A stretch of 64,000 nt of DNA, taken from the NCBI RefSeq assembly GCF_949987535.1, contig NC_080075.1, positions 372,001 to 436,000 on the forward strand. The letters are read 5' to 3'. Below, piece by piece: positions 48,381 to 64,000 of the stretch. The translations under genes were made by a program, and so were the position numbers. Every line of letters begins with the position of its first letter. The first letter of the stretch is position 1. Source of the DNA: Balaenoptera acutorostrata (Eukaryota; Chordata; Mammalia; Artiodactyla; Balaenopteridae). The notes below the pieces were generated by a model. It ran no database searches and was not told where the DNA came from. It was given only the letters and a program-made list of their open reading frames with translations.

Positions 48381-48843
48381 TTTGTTACTGAGTCCAAGCT
48401 CACTCTGCTCGTCACACGACAGGCCAATGAATTGGAGACGAGGTGCTGAGGCAAGGAATAGGACTTTGTTCGGGAAAGCTGGCAGACCAAGAAGATGGCA
48501 GACTAGTGTCTCCAACAAAGGGTTTGGATGCCAGTTTCTTTTATAGCACAGAGGGGGGAGGAGATGAGGAAGTAAAGTAAAAAGGCCATAACATTTGCAA
48601 ATGTCCCCTGGAATGGCCAGCCTCCGGGAGGGAATGTGTTAATTTCTTCTTTCTTGCAGCCATCCGCAGGTGGACGGGGTCAGGATGTACAAAGGCACTT
48701 TGGTTTAACGTTCAGTCAGAGGGGCAGGGTTCCCCGAGGCAGGACATTCTGTATGATTATAATAACAAAAGCAATGAAGAGCAAAGTTTAAAGTCAAAGA
48801 AACAGATCAAACTTGGAGTCCGATTTAGCTCTTCCCTGTTACA
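48381..48843 (-). mobile_element. Probable ERV LTR, antisense
   Basis: The ends TGTTACTGAG (48381) and CCTGTTACA (to 48843) form an imperfect terminal inverted repeat, as LTRs have. Read on the minus strand, a TATA box (TATAAAAG, 48538-48545) is followed about 85 bp later by AACAAAGTCC and a U5-like stretch. No matching 4-6 bp target duplication was found, so the ends are tentative. Confidence 0.6.
48538..48545 (-). promoter_or_regulatory. TATA box of the ERV LTR
   Basis: TATAAAAG on the minus strand lies in the expected U3 position of the antisense LTR. Confidence 0.5.
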
Positions 48844-49000
48844 GGGACAGGGAGCTTTGTCAGGGCCTGATGGAGGAACGAGGCCCAAGACAGGGCTGTG
48901 GGTGTGGAGGGGAATTAGTGTGGGGACTGGCCATAGACTCTGGAGGAGGAGCTGACAGTCACTGGAGCACAAGGACAGTGGGACCCTGGAAGGCCCCAGT

Positions 49001-49420
49001 GTTACCGAACCAAACTTGGTTCCACGCACCCATGGGTGGTAAAGCCAGTCTACTGACACCGGCTGTGGTGAAGGAAAGCAAAGCATTAATTGTAAAAGCA
49101 CCAATACAAGGAGGACGGGTGGCCTGTGCTCTAAAATCCAAACTCCCTGAAGGGTTTCAGCAAAGCAATATTAAAGGCCAGGCGAGGGAAGGGGGCCGCA
49201 GGGTATGCGATCAGCTGGTGCACAGTTCTCTGGCTGATGGTGAGGTAACAGGGCGGTTAACATTATAAATTCTTAGGCATCAGTAGCTCTGGGGCTACGT
49301 GTTCATGATCATCAAGTAGTTAATTTCTTCCATTTGGTGGTGGTTTTAGTATTTGTAAAACAACTCGGGAAGTGTGCATCAGATACTATTATCTAGGTAC
49401 TTCAGAGAGGAGTTACAACA
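49001..49420 (-). mobile_element. Second putative ERV LTR, antisense
   Basis: TGTTACCGAACCAAACTTGG opens the plus-strand reading much like the U5 end of the neighbouring LTR. The block closes near GAGTTACAACA. The body (CTAGGTACTTCAGAG, GGGGCTACGTGTTCATG) differs from the first LTR, so it would be a separate subfamily. Confidence 0.45.
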
Positions 49421-50060
49421 AAAGATGTGAAGGAGGGGTCTGTCCCGGGAAGGCCCCAGAGGGTCCTGCTCGGTTACAGCAGGTGTCTGGGCTCAGCAAC
49501 CAGGGAAGGTGGGTACCTCCTGGGTGTGGGGAGCTGCAGGACCCCAGTCCTCTGAGGGGCCTGTTAGCCCCCAGGGTGAGATGGGGATGCAATGGCTGGA
49601 CAGAGGCGTCTGGCCTGGGAGAGGGGTCCGGGCTGGAAATGTCACGGGAATCATCGCAGGGAGGGAGAGGAAAGGCCAGGCGGAGGCAGGTAGGTCACAG
49701 CAGACTATGTGCAGGTGACTGCGGTCCTGATAGAAGCAACTCAGAACCAGAAAGGAGTGGCTGTCAGGGGCTCAGCTTCATTCTCTCGTTCCTTTATAAA
49801 ACTGCTATGACAGTTTGAAGCACCGCCAGGAGACTTCTGGGCCCAGCGCTGCCATGGCTTCATCAAAGGGGCCCTGGTGGAAAACAGAACCACTACAGGC
49901 CCCGCTCACATCCCCACTGGGAATGAATCCCATCAGGGCACCGGGGCTCACAGACTTCAGTGAACCCCTGCCCTCAGGACTGGTCTTCCTCCTTGCTCTC
50001 ATCTGCGGGTCAGAGGCCCAGGCACCCACATCCTGGCTCCACCCCCCTCCCCCTGGGACT
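49421..50060. other. Unassigned GC-rich sequence
   Basis: No gene or repeat can be supported. Open frames on both strands lack domains. Confidence 0.4.
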
Positions 50061-50480
50061 GAGTAGTATTCCATTTTATGTCTGTACAACATCTTCATTT
50101 TTCTGTCAATGGACAATTTGGTGGTTTCTCTGTCTTGGCTATTGTAAATAGTGCTGCCCTGAAAATAGGGGTGCACGTGTCCTTTCAAATTATGATTTTC
50201 TCCAGATCTAAGCCCAGGAGTGGGATTGCCAGATCCAACGGGAACTCGATGTTTTGGTTTTTAAGGACCTCCATACTGCTCTCCACAGTGGCTGCACAAA
50301 TTTACATCTCCCATCAACAGTGTAGGAGGATTCCCTTTTCCCCACGTCCTGTCCAGCATTTATTCTTTGTAGATTTTTCTTGGCGATGGCGATTCTGACC
50401 GGTGTGAGGTGATACCTCATTGTAGTTTTGATTTGCATTTCTTTAATAATTAGTGACGTTGGGTACCTTTCCATGAGCTT
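50061..50480 (-). mobile_element. L1 3' module, antisense (left arm)
   Basis: Reverse-complement L1 3' sequence (GAGTAGTATTCCATTTTATG, GACCGGTGTGAGGTGATACC) begins the left arm of the inverted array. Confidence 0.85.
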
Positions 50481-50985
50481 ATTTTTTATACAGTGTGAGT
50501 AAAATTTACCTCTTGCAATTGGCTTCTTGGAAGTTGGCCCAGTTTTGAATTCTTTTCCGATGATTTACCCCAGGGCCTTTCTTGAGGGCAGGTGACATTT
50601 AGAGCCCTGCAGGCCTAGTGAAGATTAAAAACAAAAAACAAAAAACAGTAAGTAAAGTTTAACTCGTGATATTTTCTTCCTGAAAATTTGCCCTCTTTTG
50701 AAATTTTTGTCGATTTCGGACCGTAGGACATTTTTTGTGGGCAGGTGTCATTTACAGCCCTTCAATCTTTGTGAATTATTAGTGACCATCAGCACCGGTT
50801 TTAAAGTTGTTGTTATGGGAAATGGCCACAAGGCAGCAGCATTTCTTCATGCCCAACTCCGGTTAGTTGGGCAACCAGAGCCTGAGCGAAAGTCCTCTTC
50901 CTGGGTTTTCAATTAGAGTGGAATGTGCCTGAAGAAACACCCAAGGCTTGTGTCTCATGACTTCTTCCCCCTAACCCTTTCTCCC
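50481..50985 (-). repeat. X module, antisense, one and a half copies
   Basis: A partial copy (50481-50620, with TTACCTCTTGCAATTGGCTTC) is followed by a fuller copy from about 50640 (GCAGGTGTCATTTACAGCCC, GGCCACAAGGCAGCAGCATT). The module matches the reverse complement of 56872-57204, 58459-58786 and 59701-60030. An open frame 50698-50916 is shared with the copy at 59686-59967. The origin of X is unknown to me. Confidence 0.8.
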
Positions 50986-51250
50986 CGGGACAAATCCCAA
51001 CTCCTGAAACACCACTCTGCTGAGGGTGCTGTCATCCGTAGGTGGGGCGACCCTGAGGAAGGAGGCTGGAGGTGGGAAACCCCCCACCAGGAGACACGGA
51101 GCCCAGGAAACTTTTCAAAGCTCTTCCAGACCCGAGGCTCCACCATCCTTTGGGTGCACGAGGCTGGCTTTCGCTGTAGGAGGGCCCGGCTGGATCTGGA
51201 GGTTGTGGGCTCACGCAGAGGGGAACAGGCACCCCAGGGGCTCGCTGGCT
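50986..51250. other. GC-rich flank of the VNTR
   Basis: Non-repetitive here; separates X from the VNTR. Confidence 0.5.
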
Positions 51251-51940
51251 GGCGCACCGGCATCCTCACTGGCGCACCGGCATCCTCACCGGCGCACCGG
51301 CATCCTCACCGGCTCACCGGCATCCTCACCGGCGCACCGGCATCCTCACCGGCTCACCGGCATCCTCACCGGCTCACCGGCATCCTCACCGGCGCACCGG
51401 CATCCTCACCGGCTCACCGGCATCCTCACCGGCTCACCGGCATCCTCACCGGCGCACCGGCATCCTCACCGGCTCACCGGCATCCTCACCGGCGCACCGG
51501 CATCCTCACCGGCTCACCGGCATCCTCACCGGCTCACCGGCATCCTCACCGGAGCACCGGCATCCTCACCGGCGCACCGGCATCCTCACCGGAGCACCGG
51601 CATCCTCACCGGCGCACCGGCATCCTCACCGGCTCACCGGCATCCTCACCGGCGCACCGGCATCCTCACCGGCTCACCGGCATCCTCACCGGCGCACCGG
51701 CATCCTCACCGGCTCACCGGCATCCTCACCGGCGCACCGGCATCCTCACCGGCGCACCGGCATCCTCACCGGCGCACCGGCATCCTCACCGGCGCACCGG
51801 CATCCTCACCGGCTCACCGGCATCCTCACCGGCGCACCGGCATCCTCACTGGCGCACCGGCATCCTCACTGGCGCACCGGCATCCTCACTGGCTCACCGG
51901 CATCCTCACTGGCGCACCGGCATCCTCACTGGCGCACTGG
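51251..51940 (+). repeat. 20-bp CpG-rich VNTR, 34.5 copies
   Basis: Half A (GGNNCACCGG) and half B (CATCCTCACY) alternate without any indel for 690 bp, giving 35 A halves and 34 B halves. The two variable bases of A are CG in 20 copies, CT in 13 and AG in 2. B ends in CACT only in the first copy and the last five; elsewhere it is CACC. Each CG-type unit carries three CpGs. Three units make 60 bp, so every forward frame can stay open; the long open frames through it (plus 50923-52017 and 51026-52156) are by-products, not genes. Confidence 0.98.
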
Positions 51941-52064
51941 CGCGTCCTCCCCAGCTCCCTCAGCCCCACGGCAGCCCAGCTTTGGGACACAAGCCCGCTC
52001 AGGCTCCAGGGATGTGACACCAGCCCAGGTCACCAAGGACTGAGGGGAATAGAGTCAGCATTTC
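51941..52064. other. Right flank of the VNTR
   Basis: Short GC-rich non-repetitive sequence. Confidence 0.5.
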
Positions 52065-53612
52065 TTTTTTTTTTTCTTTTTAATGTTTATTTTGGATTGG
52101 AGTATATAGGTGATTTACAATGTTGTGTTTTTTTTTTAAGGTGTACAGCCTCTTGATTCACTTATACATAGACATATATGTGTTCTTTTTCAGGTTCTTT
52201 TCCCATATTGCTTATAACAGAGTGTTGAGTAGGGTACCTTGTGCTATGCAGTGGGTCCTCGTTGACTATTTTATAAATAGTAGAGTGCATATGTTAATCT
52301 CAACCTGCTAATTTCTCCCTGCCCCCGACCTTTCCCTTTCGGTAACCATAAATTTCCTTTCTATGTCTGTGAGGTTGTCTCTGTTTTGTGAAGAAGTTCA
52401 TTTGTATCCATTTTTTTTTGTATCCATTTTTAGATTCCACCTAGAAGTGATATCATATGATACTTGTATCTCCCTGTTCTTACTTCACTTAGTATGATCA
52501 TCTCTACTTCCTTCCCTGTGGCTGGAAATGACATTATTTCATGCTTTTTTATGGCTGAGTAATATTCCATTGTGTTTATGTACCACATCTTCTTTATCCA
52601 TTCATCTGTCCTTCTACACGTAGGCTACTTTTGTGTCTTGGCTATTGTACCTAGTGCTGCCATGACCGTGGTGGTGCAGGTGTCTTTTAAAATTTTGGTT
52701 TTCTCTGAATCTATGCTCAGGCAAGGTTTTGATGGGTCACATGGTACTTCTATGTTTAGTTTTTTAAAGAACCTCCATACTGTTCTCCATAGTGGATGCA
52801 CCGATTTACATTCCCACCAACAGTGCAGGAGGGTTCCCTTCTCTGCACACCCTCTCCAGCATCTATTTTGTAGATTTTTTGACGATGGGCATTTTGACCA
52901 GTGTGAGGTGATACCTCATTGGACTTTTGATTTGCATTCTATAATAATTAGTGATGCTGAGCATTTTTTCATGTGCTTTCTGGCCGTCTGTATGCCTTCT
53001 TTGGGGAAATGTCCATTTAGATCTTTGGCCCATTTTTTTATTGGATTGATTGTTTTTTTTTGATATTGAGCTGCTTGAGCTGTTTGTACGCTTTGGAGAT
53101 GAATTCCTTGTGGGTATCTGAGGGTTGTCTTTTTTTTCATTTATGATTTCCTTTGCTGTGCAAACGCTTTGAAGGTTAATTAGGTCCCATTTGTTTATTT
53201 TTGTTTTATTTTTCATTATTCTAAGAGGTGTATCATAAAAGAACTTGTTGAGATTTATGCCAAAGCGTGTTCTGCCTATATTTTCCTCAAGAGTTTTACA
53301 GTATCCATCCTTACATTTAGATCTTTAATCTATTTGGAGTTTATTTTTGTGTATGGTATTAGGGAGTATCTAATTTCATTCTCTTTTCAATTGTTTAAGG
53401 AACCTCCACACTGTCCCCCACAGTGGCTTTTACCATTTTACATACATTCCCAGCATCAGTGCAGGAGGGTTCCCTTTTCTCCACACTTTCTCCAGCATTT
53501 CTTGTTTGTAGACTTTCTGACAATGACCATTCTGACCGGTGTGAGGTGATACCTCATTGTAGTTTTGATTTTCCACTTCTCTAATATTTAGCGATGTTGA
53601 AATCTTTTCATG
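52065..53612 (-). mobile_element. L1 3' modules, antisense (left arm)
   Basis: A long reverse-complement L1 3' end (about 52065-53390) runs from the 3' UTR (GGAGTATATAGGTGATTTAC) back into ORF2. At about 53391-53612 a second reverse-complement piece repeats the CCTCCACACTGTCCCCCACA region. Two L1 pieces are therefore joined head to tail. Confidence 0.88.
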
Positions 53613-53868
53613 TGATTTTTCTTTTAAACAGTGTGAGTAAAAGTTACCTCTTGCAATTGGCTTCTTGAACATCTACCCTGTTTTGAATTCTTTTTTTTTT
53701 TTTAATTCTTTTTCGATGACCTACCCCAGGACATTTCTTGAGGGCAGGTGTTTTTTTACTTACAGCCCCGCAGGCCTTGTGAATTTTAAGTGCCCACAGC
53801 ACAGCTTTTAAAGTTGGTGTTATGGGATAACAGCCACTGGGCGGCAGCATTTCTTCAAGTCCAAATTT
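53613..53868 (-). repeat. X module, antisense, partial
   Basis: GTGTGAGTAAAAGTTACCTC, GAGGGCAGGTG and GGCGGCAGCATTTCTTCAAG match X. The outer end is missing and replaced by a T run. Confidence 0.82.
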
Positions 53869-53871
53869 TTT

Positions 53872-54647
53872 TTTTTTTGTAATTTCATTTGTATTTTATA
53901 TTGGAGTAGAGTTGATTTCCAATGTTGTGTTTGTTTTAGGTGTACAGAACCTTGATTTGGTTATACACAGACGTATATCTATTCTTTTTCAGGTTCTTTT
54001 CCCATATAGGTTATTATAGTGTTTTCAGTAGAGTTCCTTGTACTCTTCAGTAGGTCCTTTTTGATTATCTGTTTGATATATATTAGTGTGTATCTGTTAA
54101 TCCAAACCTCCTAATTTATCCCTCTCCCTACCTTTCCTTTTTGATAATCAGAAGTTGGTTTTCTAAGTCCGTGAGTCTGTATCTGTTTTGGAAATTATTT
54201 CATTTGTATGAATTTATAGATTCCACCTGTAAGCGACATCTTAGGGTATTTGTCTTTCTCCTTCTGACTTACTTAACTTACTATGATTATCTCTAGGTCC
54301 ATAGGTGACTGCAAGTGGCATTATTTCATTTTTGTCATGGCTGAGTCATATCCCAAGTGTACATGTATCACTCCTTCATCCATTCATCTGTCAATGGACA
54401 TTTAGTTTGCTTCCATGTCTTGGCTATTGTGAATAGTGCTGCAGTGCACGCTTGGGTGCACTTGTCTTTTTGAATTCTGGTTTTCAACACATATACTCTT
54501 AAAAGTGGGACTGCTGGCTCATATGGTAGCTCTGTTTTTACCTTTTAAAGGCACGTCCATAGTGTTCTCTATACTGGCTGTTACCAATTACATCCCACCA
54601 GTGCCACAGGAGGGCCCCCTTTTCTTAACCCCCATTCTAGCATTCAT
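53872..54647 (-). mobile_element. L1 3' module, antisense (left arm)
   Basis: TATTGGAGTAGAGTTGATTT opens a reverse-complement L1 3' end that continues to CATTCTAGCATTCATTG, where an LTR interrupts it. Confidence 0.88.
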
Positions 54648-55089
54648 TGCCTCTCACTCCCTAACCTTATTACTTCCCGGCGCTTACATTCTATACGCCC
54701 CTCGTAAGAAATCACCCCCGGTAGTTTTTGCATTTAAGAAACAAGGTCACTGGCCGATAAACCAGAGGCAAATGGACGCAGTTACCAGACTGCCAGACCC
54801 CAATTACTGGGCGGCCTGACGCCAGTTATGACTGTTTTGAAATAATGCAAAGGAAAGTAAGAATGCAAGACCTTCACTACTTTGATCCTTATACCCCGGA
54901 CTGCGAGAGCCCCACGTATAAAATCTTCCCTGATTCCCAAGGTGGGGGCACAGTTCTTGAGGCGCTAGCCGGCTGTGTCTTCCCTTCTGCCTGGAAGAAA
55001 AATAAAGCCATCTCTCTTTTCCTCCAAAGTCCCTGTCTCCGTATTTCTGTTCGGCGTCTGTGCACAGGGAAGCCGATATTTCGGCAACA
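54648..55089 (+). mobile_element. Probable ERV LTR, sense
   Basis: The segment has a TATA box (CGTATAAAATC, near 54919) and a poly-A signal (AAAAATAAAGCC) about 80 bp later. It ends TATTTCGGCAACA. This is the spacing of an ERV1-type LTR. No short target duplication is evident. Instead about 100 bp of L1 is repeated on both sides. Confidence 0.65.
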
Positions 55090-55304
55090 CTTCCATAATG
55101 TTCTCTATAGTGGCTGTTACCATTTACATTCCACCATCACCGCAAAAGGGTTTCCTTTACTCCATGCCCTCTACACCATTAACTCACTGTCGATTTTTGA
55201 TGATGGCCTTTCAGACCGGTGTAAGGTGATCCCTTGTGGTAGTTTTTGACTTGGATGTCTCTGCTAATTGCTAGGTTGAGCATGTTTCTATGGGCTGTTT
55301 TTCT
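55090..55304 (-). mobile_element. L1 3' module continued, antisense
   Basis: CCATAATGTTCTCTATAGTG repeats the L1 region already present at about 54552-54647, then continues to the X border. Confidence 0.82.
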
Positions 55305-55635
55305 TCATAAACAGTGTGAGGAGAATTTACCTGTTCAAATTGCCTTCTTGAAAGTCTGCCCTGTTTTCAATTATTTTTGAACACTACTCCTGGACATTTT
55401 TTGATGGCAGCTATCATTTAGAGCTCAGCAGTCCTTGTGAATATTAAGTGCCATAAGCAATCCTATTGAGGTTGCTTTTGTGGGAAAAGTCCACAAGGCG
55501 GCAGAATTTCCTCGGGCCCAACTCTGCTTACCCCGGGAACCAGAGCCTTAGGGGAAATCCTGTTTGGGGCTTGTAAATTAGAAAGGAATGTGCCAGAACA
55601 AACACCCAAATCTTGTGTCTCATTACCATTTTAAA
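55305..55635 (-). repeat. X module, antisense
   Basis: CAGTGTGAGGAGAATTTACC through CCACAAGGCGGCAGAATTTC to GTGTCTCATTACC, about 330 bp, is a complete X. Its distance to the next X on the left is 1692 bp, or 1250 bp once the LTR is subtracted. Confidence 0.85.
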
Positions 55636-55770
55636 AATTAGATTAATTTTTATTTTTTATTGGAGTAACATTGATATACAATGTTGTGTATGTTGTAGGT
55701 ATACAGAATCATTTTCAGTGATACATATAGACATATCTATGCATCTTCAGCGTCTTTACTCACACTTTTT
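55636..55770 (-). mobile_element. L1 3' terminus, antisense
   Basis: TTTTTATTGGAGTAACATTG and GTAGGTATACAGAATC are the last roughly 130 bp of the reverse-complement L1 3' UTR. The centre of the inverted arrangement follows. Confidence 0.8.
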
Positions 55771-55796
55771 TTTTAATTAAAAAGAAAAGGACAAAG

Positions 55797-55978
55797 GAAC
55801 TTCCCTGGTGGTCCAGTGGCTAAGACTCCATGCTCCCAATGCATGGGGCCCAGGTTTGATCCCTAGTCAGGGAACTAGATCCCACCTGCCACAACTAAGA
55901 GTTCACATGCCACAACTAAAGATTCTGCATGCCGCAACTAAGACCCAGCAAGCCAAACAAATAAATAAATATTAAAAG
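55797..55978 (+). mobile_element. tRNA-derived SINE, short variant
   Basis: GGAACTTCCCTGGTGGTCCA opens a shorter SINE with CAACTAAGAGTTCACATGCC in the body and an (AAAT)n tail. It differs from the other copies (GTCCAGTGGCTAAGACTCC), an older subfamily. A-rich flanks (AAAGAAAAGGACAAAG and AAAGAAAAAAGGACAG) suggest an imperfect target duplication. Confidence 0.9.
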
Positions 55979-55984
55979 AAAAAA

Positions 55985-56871
55985 GGACAGAAAAAATGGT
56001 CAACATCACAGATAATTAGAGACATGCAAATCCAAAAATAAAAGAGGTATCACCTCACACCAGGCAGAATGGTCATCAGCAAAAAGTCTAAAAACAATAA
56101 ATGCTGAAGAGGTTGTGGGGAAATGCGTACCGTCCTGTGCTGTCGGAGATATGTAAACTGGTAACAGCCACTAATGAGAACAGAATGGAGGTGCCTTTAA
56201 AAGGTAAAAACTGAGCTACCATATGATCCGCCAGACCCACTACTGGGCCTATAACCTGAGAAGATCAGAATCGAAAAGGCAGAGGCACCCAAATGTGCAC
56301 TGCAGTAACATTTACAACAGACAAGACTTGAAAGCCACCAAAATGTCCATCGACAACATGAATGGACAAAGGATAAGTGGAACATATACACAGTGGAGTA
56401 TCAGCCAGAAAAAAAATGAAACATTGCCTTTGGAGCACCATAGATGAGCCTAGAAATAATCATACTATGTGAAGTAAGTCAGAAGAGAAAGACAAACATC
56501 CTCTGATATCATTTACAGGTGTTATCTAGAAATTGATACCAATGAACAAATTTCCACAGAGGAAGACACTCACAGACTTAGAAGACAAACTTATGGTTAA
56601 CCAAAAGGAAAGGTGGGACAAATGGATAAATTAGGATACTGGAGTTAACATACATATACTAATACATGTAAAATATATAATCACCAAAGACCACCGTGTA
56701 CCAAGGAAGGTCTACTCAACACTGTGTAATAACCTACATGGGAACGGGCTCTGAAGATGAATAGATATATGTATATGTATAACGGAACAAGGTTCTGTAC
56801 ACCTAGAACAAACACAACGTTGTAATCAAATTTACTCTGATAGAAAATAAAAATTAAATTAAAAACAAACA
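55985..56871 (+). mobile_element. L1 3' module, sense (right arm)
   Basis: Starts AAAATGGTCAACATCACAGA within ORF2 and ends at the L1 3' end (TCAAATTTACTCTGATAG, AAATTAAATTAAAAAC). About 887 bp. Confidence 0.9.
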
Positions 56872-57204
56872 AGAAATAATGAGACATAAGCTTTTGGGGC
56901 TTTGTCCTGGCACATTCCACCCCAAATGACAACTTAGGAACACAACTTCCAGAAAGGCACTGTTGCCCTGATAACCAGAGTTGGGAATGCAGAAATCATG
57001 CCTCCTTGTGGCCGTATCCCGCAAAAGCATCTTTAAATCCAGTGCGAATGGTCACTAAATATTCACAAGGACTACAGGGCTGTAAATGACACCTACCCTC
57101 AGAAAATGTCCCAGGGTGGTGCATTGACAAAAATTTTCAAAACACGGCAAAATTTCAAGAAGATAATTTCAAGAGGTAAATTTTTCTCACTGTATTTTTT
57201 AAAG
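56872..57204 (+). repeat. X module, sense
   Basis: AGAAATAATGAGACATAAGC to TTTTTCTCACTGTATTTTTT; contains CCTTGTGGCCGTATCCCGC and GGGCTGTAAATGACACC. Confidence 0.9.
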
Positions 57205-57214
57205 AAAAAAAAGA

Positions 57215-58104
57215 GGACATGGAAAATTGCTCAACATCACGCATAATTAGAGATATGCAAATCTAAACTAGAAAAAAATATCACCTCACATAAGTCAGAG
57301 TGGACATCAGCAAAATGTCTACAAACAATAAATACAGAAGTGGTTTTGCAAAAATGCGTACACTTTATGCTGTTGGAGGGATGTAGACTGGTAATAGCCA
57401 CTAATGAGAACAGAACGGAGGAGCATTTAAAATATAAAAATTGAGCTACCATATGATCTGGCAGACATACTACTGGGCCTATCAACTGAGAAGACCAGAA
57501 TCAAAAAGACAAAGGCACCCAAGCATCCACTGCAGCAAGATATAGAATAACCAAGACATGGAAGCAACCAAAATGTCCATGGACACGTGAATGGACAAAG
57601 AGGAAATGGTACATGCACACAATGGAAAAAAGGATGAAACAATGGCCTTTGCAGCACTACTAATGAGCCTAGAGATAATCATACCATGTGAAATAAGTCA
57701 GAAAGAGAAAGACAAATATCCTATGACATCATTTGTAGGTGTTATCTAAAAATTGATACCAATGAACAATTTTCCACAGAGAAAGACACTCACAGACTTA
57801 CAAGACAAACTTATGGTTAACCAAAAGTAAAGTTGTGAGGAATGGATAGATTAGGATACTGAGGTTAACATACATATACTAATACATACTAATACATATA
57901 AAATATATAATCGCCAAAGGCCACTGTGTACCAAAGAAAGTGTACTCAACACACTGTAATAACCTACATGGGAACACAATCCCAGGATGAATAGATATAT
58001 GTGTATGTATAAAAGAACCAGATTCTGTATGCCTAGAACAAACACAACAATGTAATTAAATTCAGTCTAATAGAAAATAAAAAATAAATTAAAAAAACAA
58101 GTGA
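57215..58104 (+). mobile_element. L1 3' module, sense (right arm)
   Basis: GGACATGGAAAATTGCTCAA starts at the same L1 point as the other right-arm modules and ends in A-rich sequence at the SINE. About 890 bp. Confidence 0.9.
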
Positions 58105-58447
58105 GGGATTTCCCTGGTGGCACAGTGGTTAGGAATCCACCTGCCAATGCAGGGGACACAGGTTCGAGCCCTGGTCCGGGAAGATCCCACATGCCACAGA
58201 GCAACTACACCCATGCGCCACAATGACTGAGCCTGCACTCTGGAGCCCACGAGCCACAACTACTGAAGCCCGCACACCTAGAGCTGGTGCTCCACAACAA
58301 GAGAAGCCACAGCAATGAGAAGCCCGTGCACCACAACGAACAGTAGCCCCCGCTCACCACAACTAGAGAAAAGCCCGCACGCAGCAACAAAGACCCAACG
58401 CAGCCAAAAATAAATAAATAAATTAATTAATTAATTAATTTATAAGG
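58105..58447 (+). mobile_element. CHR-type SINE between L1 module and X
   Basis: GGGATTTCCCTGGTGGCACA to an (AATT)n tail. It separates the L1 end from X here; in the next unit the two are directly joined, so the SINE came later. Confidence 0.95.
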
Positions 58448-58458
58448 GAAAAAAGCGA

Positions 58459-58786
58459 GAAGTAATGAGACATAAGCTTTTGGGGTTTGTCCTGGCACAT
58501 TCCACTTTAATTGACAACCTAGGAACTCGACTTCCAGGAGGGCTCCGTTGCCCTAGTAACCAGATTTGGGAATGGAGAAATGCTGCCGCCTTGTGGCCGT
58601 TTCCTGCAACAGCAGCTTTAAACCCAGTGCTAATGGTCACTCAATATTCACAAGGACTACAGGGCTGTAAATGACACCTGCCCTCAAAAAATGTCCTGGC
58701 ATCGGGAATTGACATATTTCAAAACACGGCAGACTTTCAAGATGATAATTTCAAGAGGTAAATTTTTCTCACTGTATTTTTTAAAG
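58459..58786 (+). repeat. X module, sense
   Basis: AGAAGTAATGAGACATAAGC to TTCTCACTGTATTTTTTAAA. Contains CCGCCTTGTGGCCGTTTCCT. Confidence 0.9.
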
Positions 58787-58797
58787 AAAAATAAAAA

Positions 58798-59700
58798 GAC
58801 ATGGAAAATTGCTCAACAACACGCATAGTTAGAGACATGCAAATCTAAACTAGAAAAAATACACCTCACATCCGTCAGAGTGGCCATCAGCAAAAAGTAT
58901 ACAAACAATAAATACTAATGTGGTTTTGGAGAAATGAGTACCCTCCATGCTGTTGGAGGGATGTAGACTGGTAACAGCCACTAATGAGAAAAGAATGGAG
59001 GTGCCGTTAAAAGGTACAAATTGAGCTACATTTAATCTGGCCGACCTACTATGGGGCCAAGAAACTGAGAAGACCAGAGTCAAATAGACACAGGCACACA
59101 AGCGTCCACCACAGCAAGATATACAATAACCAAGACATGCAAGCAACCAAAATGTCCATTGACACATGAATGGACAAAGAAAGATGGTACATGTACATAA
59201 TGGAAAAATGGTACATTGTGGAATACTAGCCAGAAAAAAGAATGAAAAACTGCACTTTGCAGAACAATAGATGAGCCTATAGGTAATCATACTACTTGAA
59301 GTAAGCCAGAAAGAGAAAGAAAAATATCCTATGACATCATTTATAGGTGTTATCTAAAATTGATACCAATGAACTTATTATCACAGAGAAAGACACTCAC
59401 AGACTTAGAAGAAAAACTTACGGTTAACCAAAAGTAAAGGTGTGAGGAATGGATAAATTAGGATACTAGAATTAACATACATATACTAATACATGTAAAA
59501 TATGTAATCGCCAAAGACCATCGTGTACCAAACAAAGTGTACTCAACACCCTTTAATAACCTACAAGGGAACAAGATCTGAGGATGAATAGATATATGTG
59601 TATATATACATGAACCAGGTTCTGTACACCTAGAACCAACACAACATTGTAATCAAATTTACTCCGATAGAAAATACAAATTAAATTAAAAGAACAAACG
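58798..59700 (+). mobile_element. L1 3' module, sense (right arm)
   Basis: Starts GACATGGAAAATTGCTCAAC and ends TCAAATTTACTCCGATAG with an A-rich tail; about 903 bp. Confidence 0.9.
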
Positions 59701-60030
59701 AGAAATAATGAGGCATAAGCTTTTGGGGTTTGTCCTGGCACATTCCCCTCTAATTGACAACATAGGAACAGGACTTCCAGGAAGGCTCTGTTGCCCTACT
59801 AACCAGAGCTGGGAACATAGAAATCCTGCCGCTTTGTGGCCGTTTCCTGCAACAGCAGCTTTAAAACTAGTGCTAATGGTCACTAATAATTCACAAAGAT
59901 TGCAGGGCTGTAAATGACACCTGCCCACAAAATATGTCCTATGGTCTGAAATCGACAAAAATTTCAAAAGAGGGCAAATTTTCAGGAAGATAATATCACG
60001 AGTTAAACTTTACTCACTCTTTTTTATTAA
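59701..60030 (+). repeat. X module, sense
   Basis: AGAAATAATGAGGCATAAGC to ACTTTACTCACTCTTTTTTA. The minus-strand frame 59686-59967 is open for 93 codons and resembles the frame at 50698-50916. Confidence 0.9.
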
Positions 60031-60040
60031 TAAAAAAAAA

Positions 60041-60656
60041 GGACATGGAAAAATGGTGAACATCACAAATAGAGACATTCAAATCCAAACAACAGAGAGG
60101 TATCACATCCCACCAGGCAGCTTGGCCATCAGCAAAAAGTCTACAGAAAATAAATGCTGAAGTGGTTGTGGAGAAATGTGTACCCTCATATGCTGTTGGA
60201 GATATGTAAACAGGTAACGGCCACTAATGACCACAGAATGGAGGTGCCTTTAAAAGGTAAAAACTGAGATACCATATGATCTGCCAGACCCACTATAACT
60301 TGAGGATACCAGAATCGAAAAGGCAGAGGCACCCAAATCTGCACTGCAGCAATATGTACAACAGCCAAAACTTGGAAAGAACCAAAATGTCCACTGACAC
60401 ATGAATGGACAAAGAATAAGTGGCACATGTACACAGTGGAATATTAGCCTGAAAAGAGAATGAAACATTGCCCTTTGCAGCACCATAGATGAGCCTAGAG
60501 ATAATCATACTATGTGAGGTAAGTCAGAAAGAGAAAGACAAATATACTACGATATCATTTCTAGGTGTTATGTAAAAATTGGAACCAGTGAACATATTTC
60601 CACAGAGAAGACACTCACAGACTTAGAAGACAAACTTATGATTAAACAAAAGGAAA
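60041..60656 (+). mobile_element. L1 3' module, sense, interrupted
   Basis: The fourth right-arm module stops at CAAAAGGAAAGG, where the young L1 begins. In the other modules the same point continues into GGACAAATGG. Confidence 0.9.
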
Positions 60657-62813
60657 GGGGGGGATCTTCAAGATGGCAGAGCAGTAAAATGTGGAGATCA
60701 CCTTCCTCCCCACAAATACATCAGAAATACATCTACACGTGGAACAACTCCTACAGAATACCTACTGAACGCTGGCAGAAGACCTCAGACTTCCCAAAAG
60801 GCAAGAAACTCCCCACGAACCTGGGTAGGGCAAAAGAAAAAATAAAAAACAGAGACAAAAGAATAGGGACGGGACCTGCACCTCTGGGAGGGACCTGTGA
60901 AGGAGGAAAAGTTTCCACATACCAGGAAGCCCCTTCACTGGCAGAGACAGGGGTGTGGCGGGGTGGAAGCTTCGGAGCCACAGAGGAGAGCACAGCAACA
61001 GGGATGCAGAGGGCAAAGCGGAGAGATTCCCGCACAGAGGATCAGTGCCGACCAGCACTCACCAGCCCAAGAGGCTTGTATGCTCACCCGCCGGGGCGGG
61101 CGGGGAATGGGAGCTGAGGCTCGGGCTTCGGAGGATAGATCCCAGGGAGACGACTGGGGGTGGCTGCATGAACACAGCCTGAAGGGGTTAGCGCACCACA
61201 GCTATCCGGGAGGGAGTCCGGGAAAAAGTCTGGAACTGCCCAAGAGGCAAGAGATCATTGTTTCGGGGTGTGCGAGGAGAGGGGATTCAGAGCACCCCCT
61301 AAACGAGCTCCAGAGACAGGCGCAAGCCATGGCGATCAGCGCAGACCCCAGAGACGGGCAGGAGACGCTAAGGCTGCTGCCGCCGCCACCAAGAAGCCTG
61401 TGTGCAAGCACAGGTCACTCTCCACACCACCCCTCCTGGGAGCCTGTGCAGCCCACCACTGCCAGGGTCCCGTGATCCAGGGACAACTTCCTCGGGAGAA
61501 CACACGGCGCGCCTCAGGCTGCTGCAACGTCATGCCAGCCTCTGCCACCACAGGCTCGCCCCGCACTCCGTACCCCTCCCTCCCCCGGGCCTGAGTGAGC
61601 CACAGCCCCCGAATCAGCTGCTCCTTTAACCCCGTCCTGTCTGAGCGGGAACAGACGCCCTCAGGCAGCCTACACGCAGAGGCGGGTCCAAATCCAAAGC
61701 TGAACGCCAGGAGCTGTGCGAACAAAGAAGAGAAAGGGAAAACTCTTCCAGCAGCTTCAGGAGCAGCGGATTAAATCTCCACAATCAACTTGATGTACCC
61801 TGCATCTGTGGAATACCCGAATAGACAACAAATCATCCCAAAATTGAGGGGGTGGACTTTGGGAGCAACTGTAGACTTGGGGTTTGCTTTCTGCATCTAA
61901 CTTGTTTCTGGTTTTATGTTTATCTTAGTTTAGCATTTAGAGCTTATTATCATTGGTAGATTTGTTTACTGATTTGCTTGCTCTCTTCCTTTTTTTAAAT
62001 ATATATATATATTTTTTCTTTTTCTCTTTTTGTGAGTGTGTATGTGTATGCTTCTTTGTGTGACGTTTTCTGTATAGCTTTGCTTTTACCATTTGTCCTA
62101 GGGTTTTGTCTGTCTGTTTTTTGTTTTTTGGGGGGGTTTTTTGGTATAGTTTTTAGTGCTTGTTCTCACTAGTGGGTTTGTTTTTTGGTTTGGTTGCTCT
62201 CGTCTTTCTTTTTTTCTTTTTTTTAAATTACTTTTTAACTTTTTTTATTTTTAATAATTTTTTTATTTTAATAACTTTATTTTATTTTATTTATTTATTT
62301 TTTTTTCTCCCTTTTCTTCTGAGCCATGTGGCTGACAGGGTCATGGTGCTCGGACCAGGTGTCAGGCCTGTGCCTCTGAGGTGGGAGAGCAGAGTTCAGA
62401 ACATTGGTCCACCAGAGACCTCCTGGCTCCAAGTAATATCAAATGGTGAAAGCTCTCCCAGAGATCTCCATCTCAACACTAAGACCCAGCTCCACTCAAC
62501 AACCAGCAAGTTCCAGTGCTGGACACCCTATGCCAAACAACTAGCAAGACAGGAACACAACTCCACCCATTAGCTGCCTAAAATCATAATAGGTCACAGA
62601 CACCCCAAAACACACCACCGGACGTGGTCCTGCCCACCAGAAAGACAAGATCTAGCCTCATCCACCAGAATACAGGCACCAGTCCCCTCCACCAGGAAGC
62701 CTACACAACCCACTGAACCAACCTTAGCCACTGGGGGCAGACACCAAAAACAACGGGAACTACGAACCTGCAGCCTGTGAAAAGGAGACCCCAAACACAG
62801 TAAGTTAAGCAAA
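60657..62813 (+). promoter_or_regulatory. L1 5' UTR (internal promoter)
   Basis: About 2.15 kb. The first kilobase is CpG-rich (CACCCGCCGGGGCGGGCGGG near 61086). A YY1-like CAAGATGGC lies at 60669-60677, within 20 bp of the start, as in other mammalian L1s. A T-rich stretch at 61990-62310 precedes the ORF1-proximal part. Open frames here (for example plus 60897-61475) have no recognised product. Confidence 0.85.
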
Positions 62814-63716
62814 ATGAGAAGACAGAGAAACACAGAGCAGATGAAGGAGCAAGGTAAAAACCCACCAGACCAAACAAACGAAGAGGAAATAGGCAGTCTA
62901 CCTGAAAAAGAATTCAGAGTAATGATAGTAAAGATGATCCAAAGTCTTGGAAACAGAATGGAGAAAATACAAGAAACGTTTAACAAGGACCTAGAAGAAC
63001 TAAAGAGCAAACAAACAGTGATGAACAACACAATAAATGAAATTAAAAATTCTCTAGAAGAAATCAATAGCAGAACAACTGAGGCAGAAGAACGGATAAG
63101 TGACCTGGAAGATTAAATAGTGGAAATAACTACCGCAGAGCAGAATAAAGAAAAAAGAATGAAAAGAATTGAGGACTCCCAGAGTCTCAGAGACCTCTGG
63201 GACAACATTAAATGCACCAACATTCGAATTATAGGGGTCTCAGAAGAAGAAGAGAAAAAGAAAGGGACTGAGAAAATATTTGAAGAGATTATAGTTGAAA
63301 ATTTCCCTGATATGGGGAAGGAAATAGTCAATCAAGTCCAGGAAGTGCAGAGAGTCCCATACAGGACAAACCCAAGGAGAAACACGCCAAGACACATATT
63401 AATCAAACTATCAAAAATTAAATACAAAGAAAAAATATTAAAAGCAGCAAGGGAAAAGCAACAAATAACATACAAGAGAATCCCCATAAGGGTAACAGCT
63501 GATCTTTCAGCAGAAACTCGGCAAGCTAGAAGGGAGTGGCAGGACATATTTAAAGTGAGGAAAGGGAAAAACCTACAACCAAGAGAACTCTACCCAGCAA
63601 GGATCTCATTCAGATTCGATGGAGAAATTAAAAACTTTACAGACAAGCAAAAGCTAAGAGAATTCAGCACCACTAAACCAGCTCTACAACAAATGCTAAA
63701 GGAACTTCTCTAGGCA
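62814..63716 (+). pseudogene. L1 ORF1, one nonsense codon
   Basis: The frame opens at ATG 62814 (MRRQRN). It meets TAA at 63114-63116 (AAA to TAA after DLED, codon 101) and then continues in the same frame to TAG at 63714-63716. No frameshift is present. Coiled coil, RNA-recognition and C-terminal regions are all recognisable; ISFRFDGEIKNFTDKQ lies near the end. Otherwise full length, 300 codons. Confidence 0.92.
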
Positions 63717-63771
63717 GGAAACACAAGAGAAGGAAAAGACCTACAATAACAAACCCAAAACAACTAAGAAA

Positions 63772-64000
63772 ATGGTAATAAGAACATACATATTGATAAT
63801 TACATTAAATGTAAATGGATTAAATGCTCCTGCCAAAAGACATAGACTGGCTAAATGGATACAAAAACAAGACCCATATATACGCTGTCTACAAGAGACC
63901 CACTTCAGGCCTAGGGACACATACTGACTGAAAGTGAGGAGATGGAAAAAGATACTCCATGCAAATGGAAATCAAGAGAAAGCTGGAGTAGCAATTCTCA
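63772..64000 (+). pseudogene. L1 ORF2 start, broken and cut by window end
   Basis: ATG 63772 opens the endonuclease domain (TLNVNGLNAP, CLQETHFRPRDTY). A TGA at 63925-63927 (AGA in the copy near 39985) ends it at codon 52. The rest of ORF2 is outside the window. Confidence 0.88.

What the first reader, a model, noticed from the sequence alone, without database searches (positions are those of the whole stretch)
50061..60656. Inverted satellite-like array of L1-3' end plus X modules
L1 3' ends alternate with a roughly 330-bp non-L1 segment (X). On the right they are in sense with X starts at 56872, 58459 and 59701, a period of about 1.24-1.25 kb after removing one SINE. On the left they are antisense; two X copies are 1692 bp apart, or 1250 bp without an LTR. 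Both arms read outward from a centre near 55.77-55.98 kb. Independent L1 insertions would not give a fixed period with the same X at every junction, so tandem amplification plus inversion is implied. I recall that cetacean heterochromatic satellites have been described as L1-derived. This may be a dispersed or ancestral form of such a satellite; that link is unverified.
Basis: partly seen in the sequence, partly recalled or inferred. Interest (0 to 1): 0.75.

Follow-up and report, generated by a model that had tools for sequence, protein, structure and literature searches.

The report
Fossil cradle of whale satellite DNA
This stretch of a probable baleen-whale chromosome is a decayed, inverted array related to the main repetitive DNA of whale heterochromatin, and it may still carry a close relative of the jumping-gene copy from which that DNA arose, so the origin of a major whale satellite could be traced at a real place in the genome.

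Summary
The array is real. Seven X copies (three of them incomplete or mosaic) alternate with L1 3' ends on two arms reading outward from about 55.76-55.98 kb; the right period is 1.22-1.25 kb once one SINE is removed. The left '1250 without LTR' is a coincidence. X is not L1 sequence: 131 of 139 X copies examined in the same genome run into the start of the same L1 piece. X and a further segment Y are part of a 1,758-1,759-bp satellite, which I identify by length and L1 content as the common cetacean satellite (CCS), already known to be L1-derived. The window array is a diverged, mostly Y-less relative. Elsewhere the short form builds 4.4- and 5.3-kb higher-order repeats. The left end (50.06-53.87 kb) is a block shared with C21, C22 and C19, and by its two joints with C6 and C13; on C21 it closes both ends of a palindrome. 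It holds an L1 reaching further into ORF2 than satellite units do. Five copies of this L1 are sister to 22 other satellite L1 modules (support 88/83): a founder-like unit. Whether any of this is already in print outside the open library is unknown.

The parts
48700..50050 (+). Flanking duplicon, multi-copy; the array is joined at about 50046
   Evidence: 40 of 40 scored candidates (of 3143 first-look) match, the window itself and 39 others at 85-91%; 27 of 40 scored places stop at query 346-348 (window about 50046)
50057..50480 (-). Outermost L1 module (L1 profile positions 3-431), cut at the flank junction
50490..50626 (-). X, second half only (positions 187-323), read as the displaced original half
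50640..50965 (-). X, full length, mosaic: 50644-50789 is 139/146 identical to right-arm 59876-60021; the first half is mostly closest to the C22 paralogue
50967..51242 (-). Y, part next to X
51251..51957 (.). 20-bp minisatellite (34.5 copies) grown inside Y; absent from the C21, C22 and C19 paralogues
51958..52066 (-). Y, part next to the L1 3' end
   Evidence: matches 14 of 14 other Y stretches better than any of 300 shuffles (against the CCS only narrowly, 22.6 to 21.1 bits)
52069..52979 (-). L1 3' module of the founder-like unit, followed by Y then X
52980..53397 (-). ORF2 extension of that L1, absent from the other satellite units mapped
53380..53618 (-). L1 module positions 2-235, joined to the ORF2 extension
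53626..53866 (-). X positions 108-325
53873..54652 (-). L1 module positions 113-897
   Evidence: 89-90% to C22
54653..55087 (.).
55086..55296 (-). L1 module positions 4-216
55309..55626 (-). X, left-arm subfamily
55640..55757 (-). L1 module 3' end (positions 771-889), last antisense piece
55758..55975 (+). Turn: by eye about 25 bp of a sense X tail, then a tRNA-derived SINE with imperfect flanking repeats
55983..56867 (+). L1 module R0
56872..57198 (+). X R1
57212..58099 (+). L1 module R1
58104..58445 (+). SINE insertion between L1 R1 and X R2
   Evidence: repeat shared with other places in the window; SINE by recall
58458..58780 (+). X R2
58794..59696 (+). L1 module R2
59701..60025 (+). X R3
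60038..60660 (+). L1 module R3, cut at about position 647
60661..64000 (+). 5' part of a younger L1 that ends the array
   Evidence: L1 ORF1 domains PF02994 and PF17490 at 63117-63710

Best explanation
The locus is a decayed, interstitial member of the L1-derived satellite family to which the common cetacean satellite (CCS) belongs. Inferred history: (1) an L1 lay next to a non-L1 sequence Y-X; (2) the segment from a fixed point in ORF2 through the L1 3' end, Y and X was duplicated in tandem, making the X|L1 junction that the units share; (3) one lineage kept Y and became the 1.76-kb CCS, another lost Y and became 1.2-kb X-L1 units that expanded by unequal exchange into arrays and higher-order repeats; (4) an array became joined to the edge of a break within a duplicon that is common near contig ends, in an inverted arrangement that makes a palindromic cassette, and the cassette was copied to several chromosomes. 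The window holds the left end of such a cassette, including a founder-like unit, and lacks the right end. Shown here: shared junction, X and Y in the CCS-like satellite, higher-order repeats, the C21 palindrome, shared end blocks, uninterrupted copies of the joint site, the clade of satellite L1s. Inferred: order of events, the fold-back or recombination mechanism, and the founder status of the ORF2-extended L1.
For: X|L1 junction in 131 of 139 X copies. Nearly identical higher-order repeats of about 5.3 kb on C1342 and repeats of about 4.42 kb on C2 and C223. The 1,758-bp satellite contains L1, X and Y in the same order, 163 bits against a best of 29.7 in 300 shuffles. L1 tree rooted on dispersed L1s: all 90 X- or Y-linked modules in one clade of 95 rows (98*; the other 5 rows, labelled noXY, also lie inside arrays), and 27 rows at 99/98*. 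CCS-type X in one clade with six interstitial Y-X units (97*). C21 cassette with inverted 3.4-kb end blocks 91.9% identical and flank at both ends. Flank|L1 junction full length at 6 of 40 scored places (one is the window) plus a split copy on C19, while 27 of 40 match the flank only and stop at the joint; 7 of 7 other flank copies read were continuous through the site. Five ORF2-extended L1s form a clade (100/100) sister to 22 other satellite L1 modules (88/83).
Against: The sister position of the ORF2-extended L1 has only 88/83 support, on 33 rows that I chose by hand; (quick tree, approximate root) it is one branch of an unresolved base. The window's X are only 60-63% identical to the CCS X; the link leans on the order of parts and on intermediates of 72-78%. 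Form and tree do not always agree: 2 of 15 X that follow Y (win_50640, L018_349) fall outside the long clade and one short-type X (L017_3414) falls beside it. The 5' side of the founder-like L1 is itself a rearranged joint (L1 position 235), not plain flank. On C21 the far side of the cassette is an inverted flank, not the sequence that follows the flank elsewhere, so the joint is not a clean insertion. No target-site duplication of a founding insertion was found.
Confidence: 0.85

Rival explanations
1. Independent ordinary L1 insertions that happen to alternate with X.
For: L1 3' ends end in A-rich tails and many L1s lie nearby.
Against: The same L1 start next to the same X in 131 of 139 copies; arrays and higher-order repeats; satellite L1 modules in one clade apart from dispersed L1s.
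Confidence: 0.02
2. X plus L1 3' end is a composite retrotransposon spread by retrotransposition, and the arrays are nested insertions.
For: The unit begins at X and ends in an L1 3' end with an A-rich tail, as such an element would; X matches lie on many contigs.
Against: Units abut head to tail in phase in the four 10-kb stretches of C1342 that were read, with X matches at multiples of about 5.3 kb between 5 and 75 kb; end blocks carry the neighbouring flank with them, which is duplication of genomic DNA.
Confidence: 0.05
3. The ORF2-extended L1 is a later chimera (dispersed L1 recombined with a satellite unit), not a relic of the founder.
For: Its 5' end is a rearranged joint to another unit at position 235; the left part of the array is visibly mosaic.
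Against: Its whole 3' module is sister to the 22 other satellite modules in the tree (88/83), and grouping with two old dispersed L1s is rejected, p-AU 0.011; it is followed by Y as in the CCS.
Confidence: 0.3
4. The cassettes are an assembly artefact of collapsed or mis-joined repeats.
For: Palindromes and satellites are prone to misassembly; only one assembly was seen.
Against: Paralogues on C18, C21, C22 and C19 differ by about 7-22% and carry private insertions (minisatellite in the window, SINE on C19), which a collapse or a chimeric join would not make.
Confidence: 0.04

Closest known systems
Common cetacean satellite (CCS; Kapitonov, Holmquist and Jurka 1998 on its L1 origin, known here only through reviews; Widegren 1985 and Arnason 1992 by title)
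   Same: L1 3' end joined to X at the same point; X and Y in the same order; same genome
   Different: CCS unit 1,758-1,759 bp, nearly homogeneous, best matches on contigs numbered 90 and above; window units about 1.24 kb, most without Y, 12-19% different within the right arm and up to about 35% between arms, interstitial, inverted. That the baleen-whale CCS is about 1.75 kb is recalled, not read here
Baleen-whale terminal satellite (Adegoke 1993, by title; unit length recalled as 422 bp)
   Same: A satellite with 421-422-bp periodicity is on 2 of 5 sampled contigs of this genome
   Different: No X or L1-module match in those stretches
Great-ape subterminal caps, satellite plus segmental duplication (recalled, not tested)
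   Same: Satellite travelling with a duplicon found near chromosome ends
   Different: Different sequences; as far as I recall no palindromic L1-derived core

Membership tests
Common cetacean satellite | Monomer contains an L1 3' end | tested here: met
Common cetacean satellite | Non-L1 part X present and joined to L1 at the same point | tested here: met
   (the defining feature itself comes from the 1,758-bp satellite of this genome, not from a published record)
Common cetacean satellite | Y present in the unit | tested here: not met
   Only the unit at 50640-52979 has Y; X at 55309, 56872 and 59701 follow an L1 end, X at 58458 a SINE
Common cetacean satellite | Unit length about 1.58 (killer whale, by title) to 1.76 kb | tested here: not met
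   1.22-1.25 kb in the right arm
Common cetacean satellite | Long homogeneous heterochromatic array | tested here: not met
   L1 modules K2P 0.13-0.22 within the right arm; chromatin state not testable
Common cetacean satellite | Sequence match to a deposited CCS record | not testable with these tools
   No eukaryote database; the 1,758-bp satellite was identified by length and L1 content
Ordinary L1 insertions | Own 5' cut point, tail and target-site duplication for each copy | tested here: not met
   Common start; no target-site duplication seen at the places examined (by eye, 69)

The most novel reading that the evidence does not exclude
The end blocks preserve the birth structure of the common cetacean satellite: the original, longer L1 with its Y-X neighbour and the first tandem copy, sealed in palindromic cassettes that were copied among chromosomes. 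The satellite's founder would then still be readable at known places in a whale genome.
Probability: 0.45. Interest if true: 0.75.

Novelty: new variant of a known kind. Interest (0 to 1): 0.6.

Why it matters
How a transposon becomes a chromosome-scale satellite is usually inferred from finished arrays. Here a founder-like unit, two divergent satellite lineages (with and without Y), higher-order repeats and uninterrupted copies of the joint site lie in one genome, so steps of satellite birth and spread can be ordered and dated. It also defines the non-L1 parts X and Y of the whale satellite and gives probes for them.

Tried and rejected
Rejected: X as L1 3' UTR (none of 8 other L1 3' pieces in the window has it); X as a known RNA family (three matches at E up to 0.1, none in X or Y: a tRNA match above its gathering score and a miRNA family below it in the central SINE, and a miRNA family far below its gathering score in L1); LTR insertion explaining the left period (no clean target-site duplication by eye, overlapping L1 pieces); the 60661 L1 as a simple insertion into the array (no matching repeat beyond it and no array resuming); inverted duplication of one array.

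Led nowhere: genome-wide counts by pattern (not completed); Pfam on flank frames (0 families for 2 of 2; 3 of 4 L1 frames also had none). Literature for X, Y or a 1.2-kb form: searches; of nine papers I saw passages only (PMC9659126, PMC6947457, PMC8909793, PMC10815390, PMC10919930, PMC5751776, PMC7763226, PMC5615363, PMC3975639), of the rest the listing. Kapitonov 1998, Arnason 1992 and Widegren 1985 are not held and were not read, so I cannot say that they do not describe parts of this.

Limits: first-look candidate numbers (4056 for X, 3143 for the flank, 8954 for the flank joint, 9444 for the inner joint, 715 for the CCS) are not confirmed copies; 40 per search are scored. Loci were chosen from the best X matches, so the 139 X copies (in 20 of 25 fetched stretches and the window) are not a random sample and many are near-identical repeats. 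The 8 of 139 that do not run into the L start: 4 have no L within 150 bases, 3 lack the X 3' end, 1 meets L internally. Rows dropped: one search dropped repeat copies (L010-L012; L009 beyond 5,290; L026 and L027 beyond 4,500) and incomplete X outside the window, leaving 95; one search likewise, plus L030 and L033 beyond 2,500, L031 and short L pieces, leaving 103; one search used 33 hand-picked rows.
Full report
What is there. Right arm (+): L 55983-56867, X 56872-57198, L 57212-58099, SINE 58104-58445, X 58458-58780, L 58794-59696, X 59701-60025, L 60038-60660. The period is 1.22-1.25 kb after removal of the SINE. Left arm (-), going outward from the turn: L tail 55757-55640, X 55626-55309, L 55296-55086, LTR-like piece, L 54652-53873, X 53866-53626, L 53618-53380, ORF2 piece 53397-52980, L 52979-52069, Y (52066-51958 and 51242-50967, parted by a 20-bp minisatellite), X 50965-50640, half X 50626-50490, L 50480-50057, flank. 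The array stops at 60660 against the 5' end of a younger L1. In C18:436001-456000 no X, Y or flank match was found.

Corrections to the observation. The left spacing of 1683 bp (about 1250 without the LTR-like piece) looks like a unit length but is an accident: L pieces overlap by about 100 bp across the LTR-like piece and the X at 53866 lacks its first 108 bp. The arms are not mirror images. The innermost left X (55309) clusters with seven X from one arm of the C22, C6, C13 and C19 loci (98*), the three right-arm X with the short-form clade (100*), two partial left X form a deeper pair (88, not starred), and the left X that follows Y groups with right-arm X R3 because half of it was copied from there.

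X is a real unit partner of L1. None of 8 other L1 3' pieces in the window has an X. In the same genome (G000, 2.77 Gb; the window is C18:372001-436000) X gave 43 matches from 40 scored of 4056 first-look candidates. In 25 fetched stretches plus the window there are 139 X copies: 131 run into the L start (profile position 50 or less, at most 112 bases away), 100 are preceded directly by an L 3' end (short form), 15 by Y (long form), 16 by something else, 8 are partial. These loci were chosen for X and many copies are near-identical repeats, so this is not a random sample. C1342 carries four X-L units as a higher-order repeat of about 5.3 kb (5,293-5,309 bp), one unit with an insertion of about 370 bp that looks like a SINE; C2 and C223 carry one of about 4.42 kb.

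Link to the cetacean satellite. Five further contigs were sampled for 5 kb each: two hold a satellite with period 421-422 and its multiples, two hold one of 1,758-1,759 bp, one neither. The printed part of one of the former (L032) has TTAGGG-like runs; PMC3975639 (passages) says such repeats are a primordial component of cetacean repetitive DNA, and Adegoke 1993 (title only) describes a terminal satellite of all whalebone whales. That, the cetacean type of the SINEs (recalled) and the 1,758-bp unit are my grounds for calling this a baleen whale. The 1,758-bp unit contains an antisense L1 3' end, a 72-bp palindrome, then X and Y in the order seen at window 50.66-51.23 kb (163 bits, best of 300 dinucleotide shuffles 29.7). 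The 40 scored matches of 715 first-look candidates lie on 33 contigs numbered 90 and above, at 96-100% identity, none on C1-C28. I identify it as the common cetacean satellite: that this satellite's monomer resembles the L1 3' end is stated in PMC9659126 (passages), citing Kapitonov 1998, which is not held; the length of about 1.75 kb in baleen whales is recalled. The window's X are 60-63% identical to the CCS X, but six interstitial Y-X units at L018, L016, L015 and L019 are 72-78% and group with it (97*). Two of 15 X that follow Y fall outside the long side of the tree (L018_349, win_50640) and one short-type X (L017_3414) falls on it.

One origin. In the tree of 103 L rows (quick method, approximate root) all 90 X- or Y-linked modules fall in one clade of 95 rows (98*); the other five rows, labelled noXY, also lie inside arrays by position. 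So the L1 of short and long forms goes back to one L1 lineage. In 33 hand-picked rows the split of satellite from dispersed L1 has 99/98*.

The cassette. The window's left end is shared. Window 49013-50628 matches C22 at 91.4% and 51909-54652 at 88.9%. C21:39919001-39935000 is a whole cassette: flank, L(431-3), X, Y, L, ORF2 piece, L(235-2), X(108-), an array, then the same blocks in reverse order and opposite orientation to an inverted flank; the two end blocks, 3.4 kb with some flank, are 91.9% identical. C19 carries the sense-oriented end block, with a SINE in Y. The flank|L junction is full length at 6 of 40 scored places (the window, C21 twice, C6, C13, C22) and split on C19; 27 of the 40 match the flank only and stop at the joint, 6 match L1 only. 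Seven other flank copies were fetched, five from those 27 and two, and 7 of 7 read straight through the site into the same following sequence. I take this as the site before the joint was made; but on C21 the far side of the cassette is an inverted flank, not that following sequence, so it is a breakpoint rather than a clean insertion. The inner joint (ORF2 piece, L 235, X) recurs on C6, C22, C21 twice, C13 and C25 (76%), and with an insertion on C19. C6 and C13 end blocks themselves were not read. The flank is multi-copy (40 of 40 scored, the 39 others at 85-91%); at least 12 of the 39 lie within 0.55 Mb of an end of a large contig, and several near X arrays.

A founder-like unit. The L1 at 52069-53397 reaches at least 418 bp further into ORF2 than the other satellite units mapped, and is followed by Y, X and then the X|L junction: what the first unit of a tandem duplication should look like. 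Its five copies read (window, C22, C21 twice, C19) form a clade (100/100) that is sister to 22 other satellite modules (88/83); grouping it with two old dispersed L1s is rejected (p-AU 0.0108). Since these blocks and the CCS both have Y, loss of Y in the short form is the simpler direction. Against it: moderate support, hand-picked rows, and a rearranged 5' joint.

Exchange between arms. X at 50640-50965 is a mosaic: 50644-50789 is 139/146 identical to 59876-60021 on the other arm, while the first half is mostly nearest the C22 paralogue, and what I read as the displaced second half survives at 50490-50626. So the inverted arms appear to have exchanged sequence. The minisatellite 51251-51957 grew inside Y in this copy: both its flanks align with Y of other loci, the L1-side flank beating all 300 shuffles against 14 of 14 Y stretches, though against the CCS only narrowly, and C21, C22 and C19 lack it.

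Mechanism, shown and inferred. Shown: common junctions, order of parts, higher-order repeats, palindromic cassette on C21, uninterrupted sites, clades. Inferred: tandem duplication at birth, later loss of Y, inversion by fold-back or recombination, copying of the cassette as duplicated genomic DNA. No function is claimed; the array in the window looks like a decayed relic.

Novelty. That the CCS derives from L1 is known. The short form, its higher-order repeats, X and Y as shared parts, the palindromic cassette and the founder candidate were not seen in the listings and passages of my searches, but the key older papers are not held.

Noticed in passing
window 48700-50050: The unique-looking left flank is a multi-copy duplicon; at least 12 of 39 other scored copies lie within 0.55 Mb of an end of a large contig.
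   Followed up: partly
window 51251-51957: A 20-bp minisatellite (34.5 copies) has expanded inside segment Y; paralogues on C21, C22 and C19 lack it.
   Followed up: yes
L033:1-1758 (C1200), unit positions 1190-1261: A 72-bp near-perfect palindrome sits inside the L1 part of the 1,758-bp satellite; it looks like a mariner-type miniature element (recalled).
   Followed up: no
C27:27616406-27750622: Flank copies and X arrays on C27 are arranged symmetrically around about 27.684 Mb: possibly a palindrome of about 130 kb.
   Followed up: no
L029 and L032 (C240, C960): Satellite with 421-422-bp periodicity on 2 of 5 sampled contigs, with TTAGGG-like runs in the printed part of L032.
   Followed up: partly
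window 60661-64000 and L013: Overlapping L1-type segments follow the array; no target-site duplication matching the 5' side was found.
   Followed up: partly
L014:3381-3847 (C18, about 449.4-449.8 kb): A diverged (about 75%), inverted copy of the sequence that follows the flank at uninterrupted sites lies some 17 kb beyond the array end.
   Followed up: no
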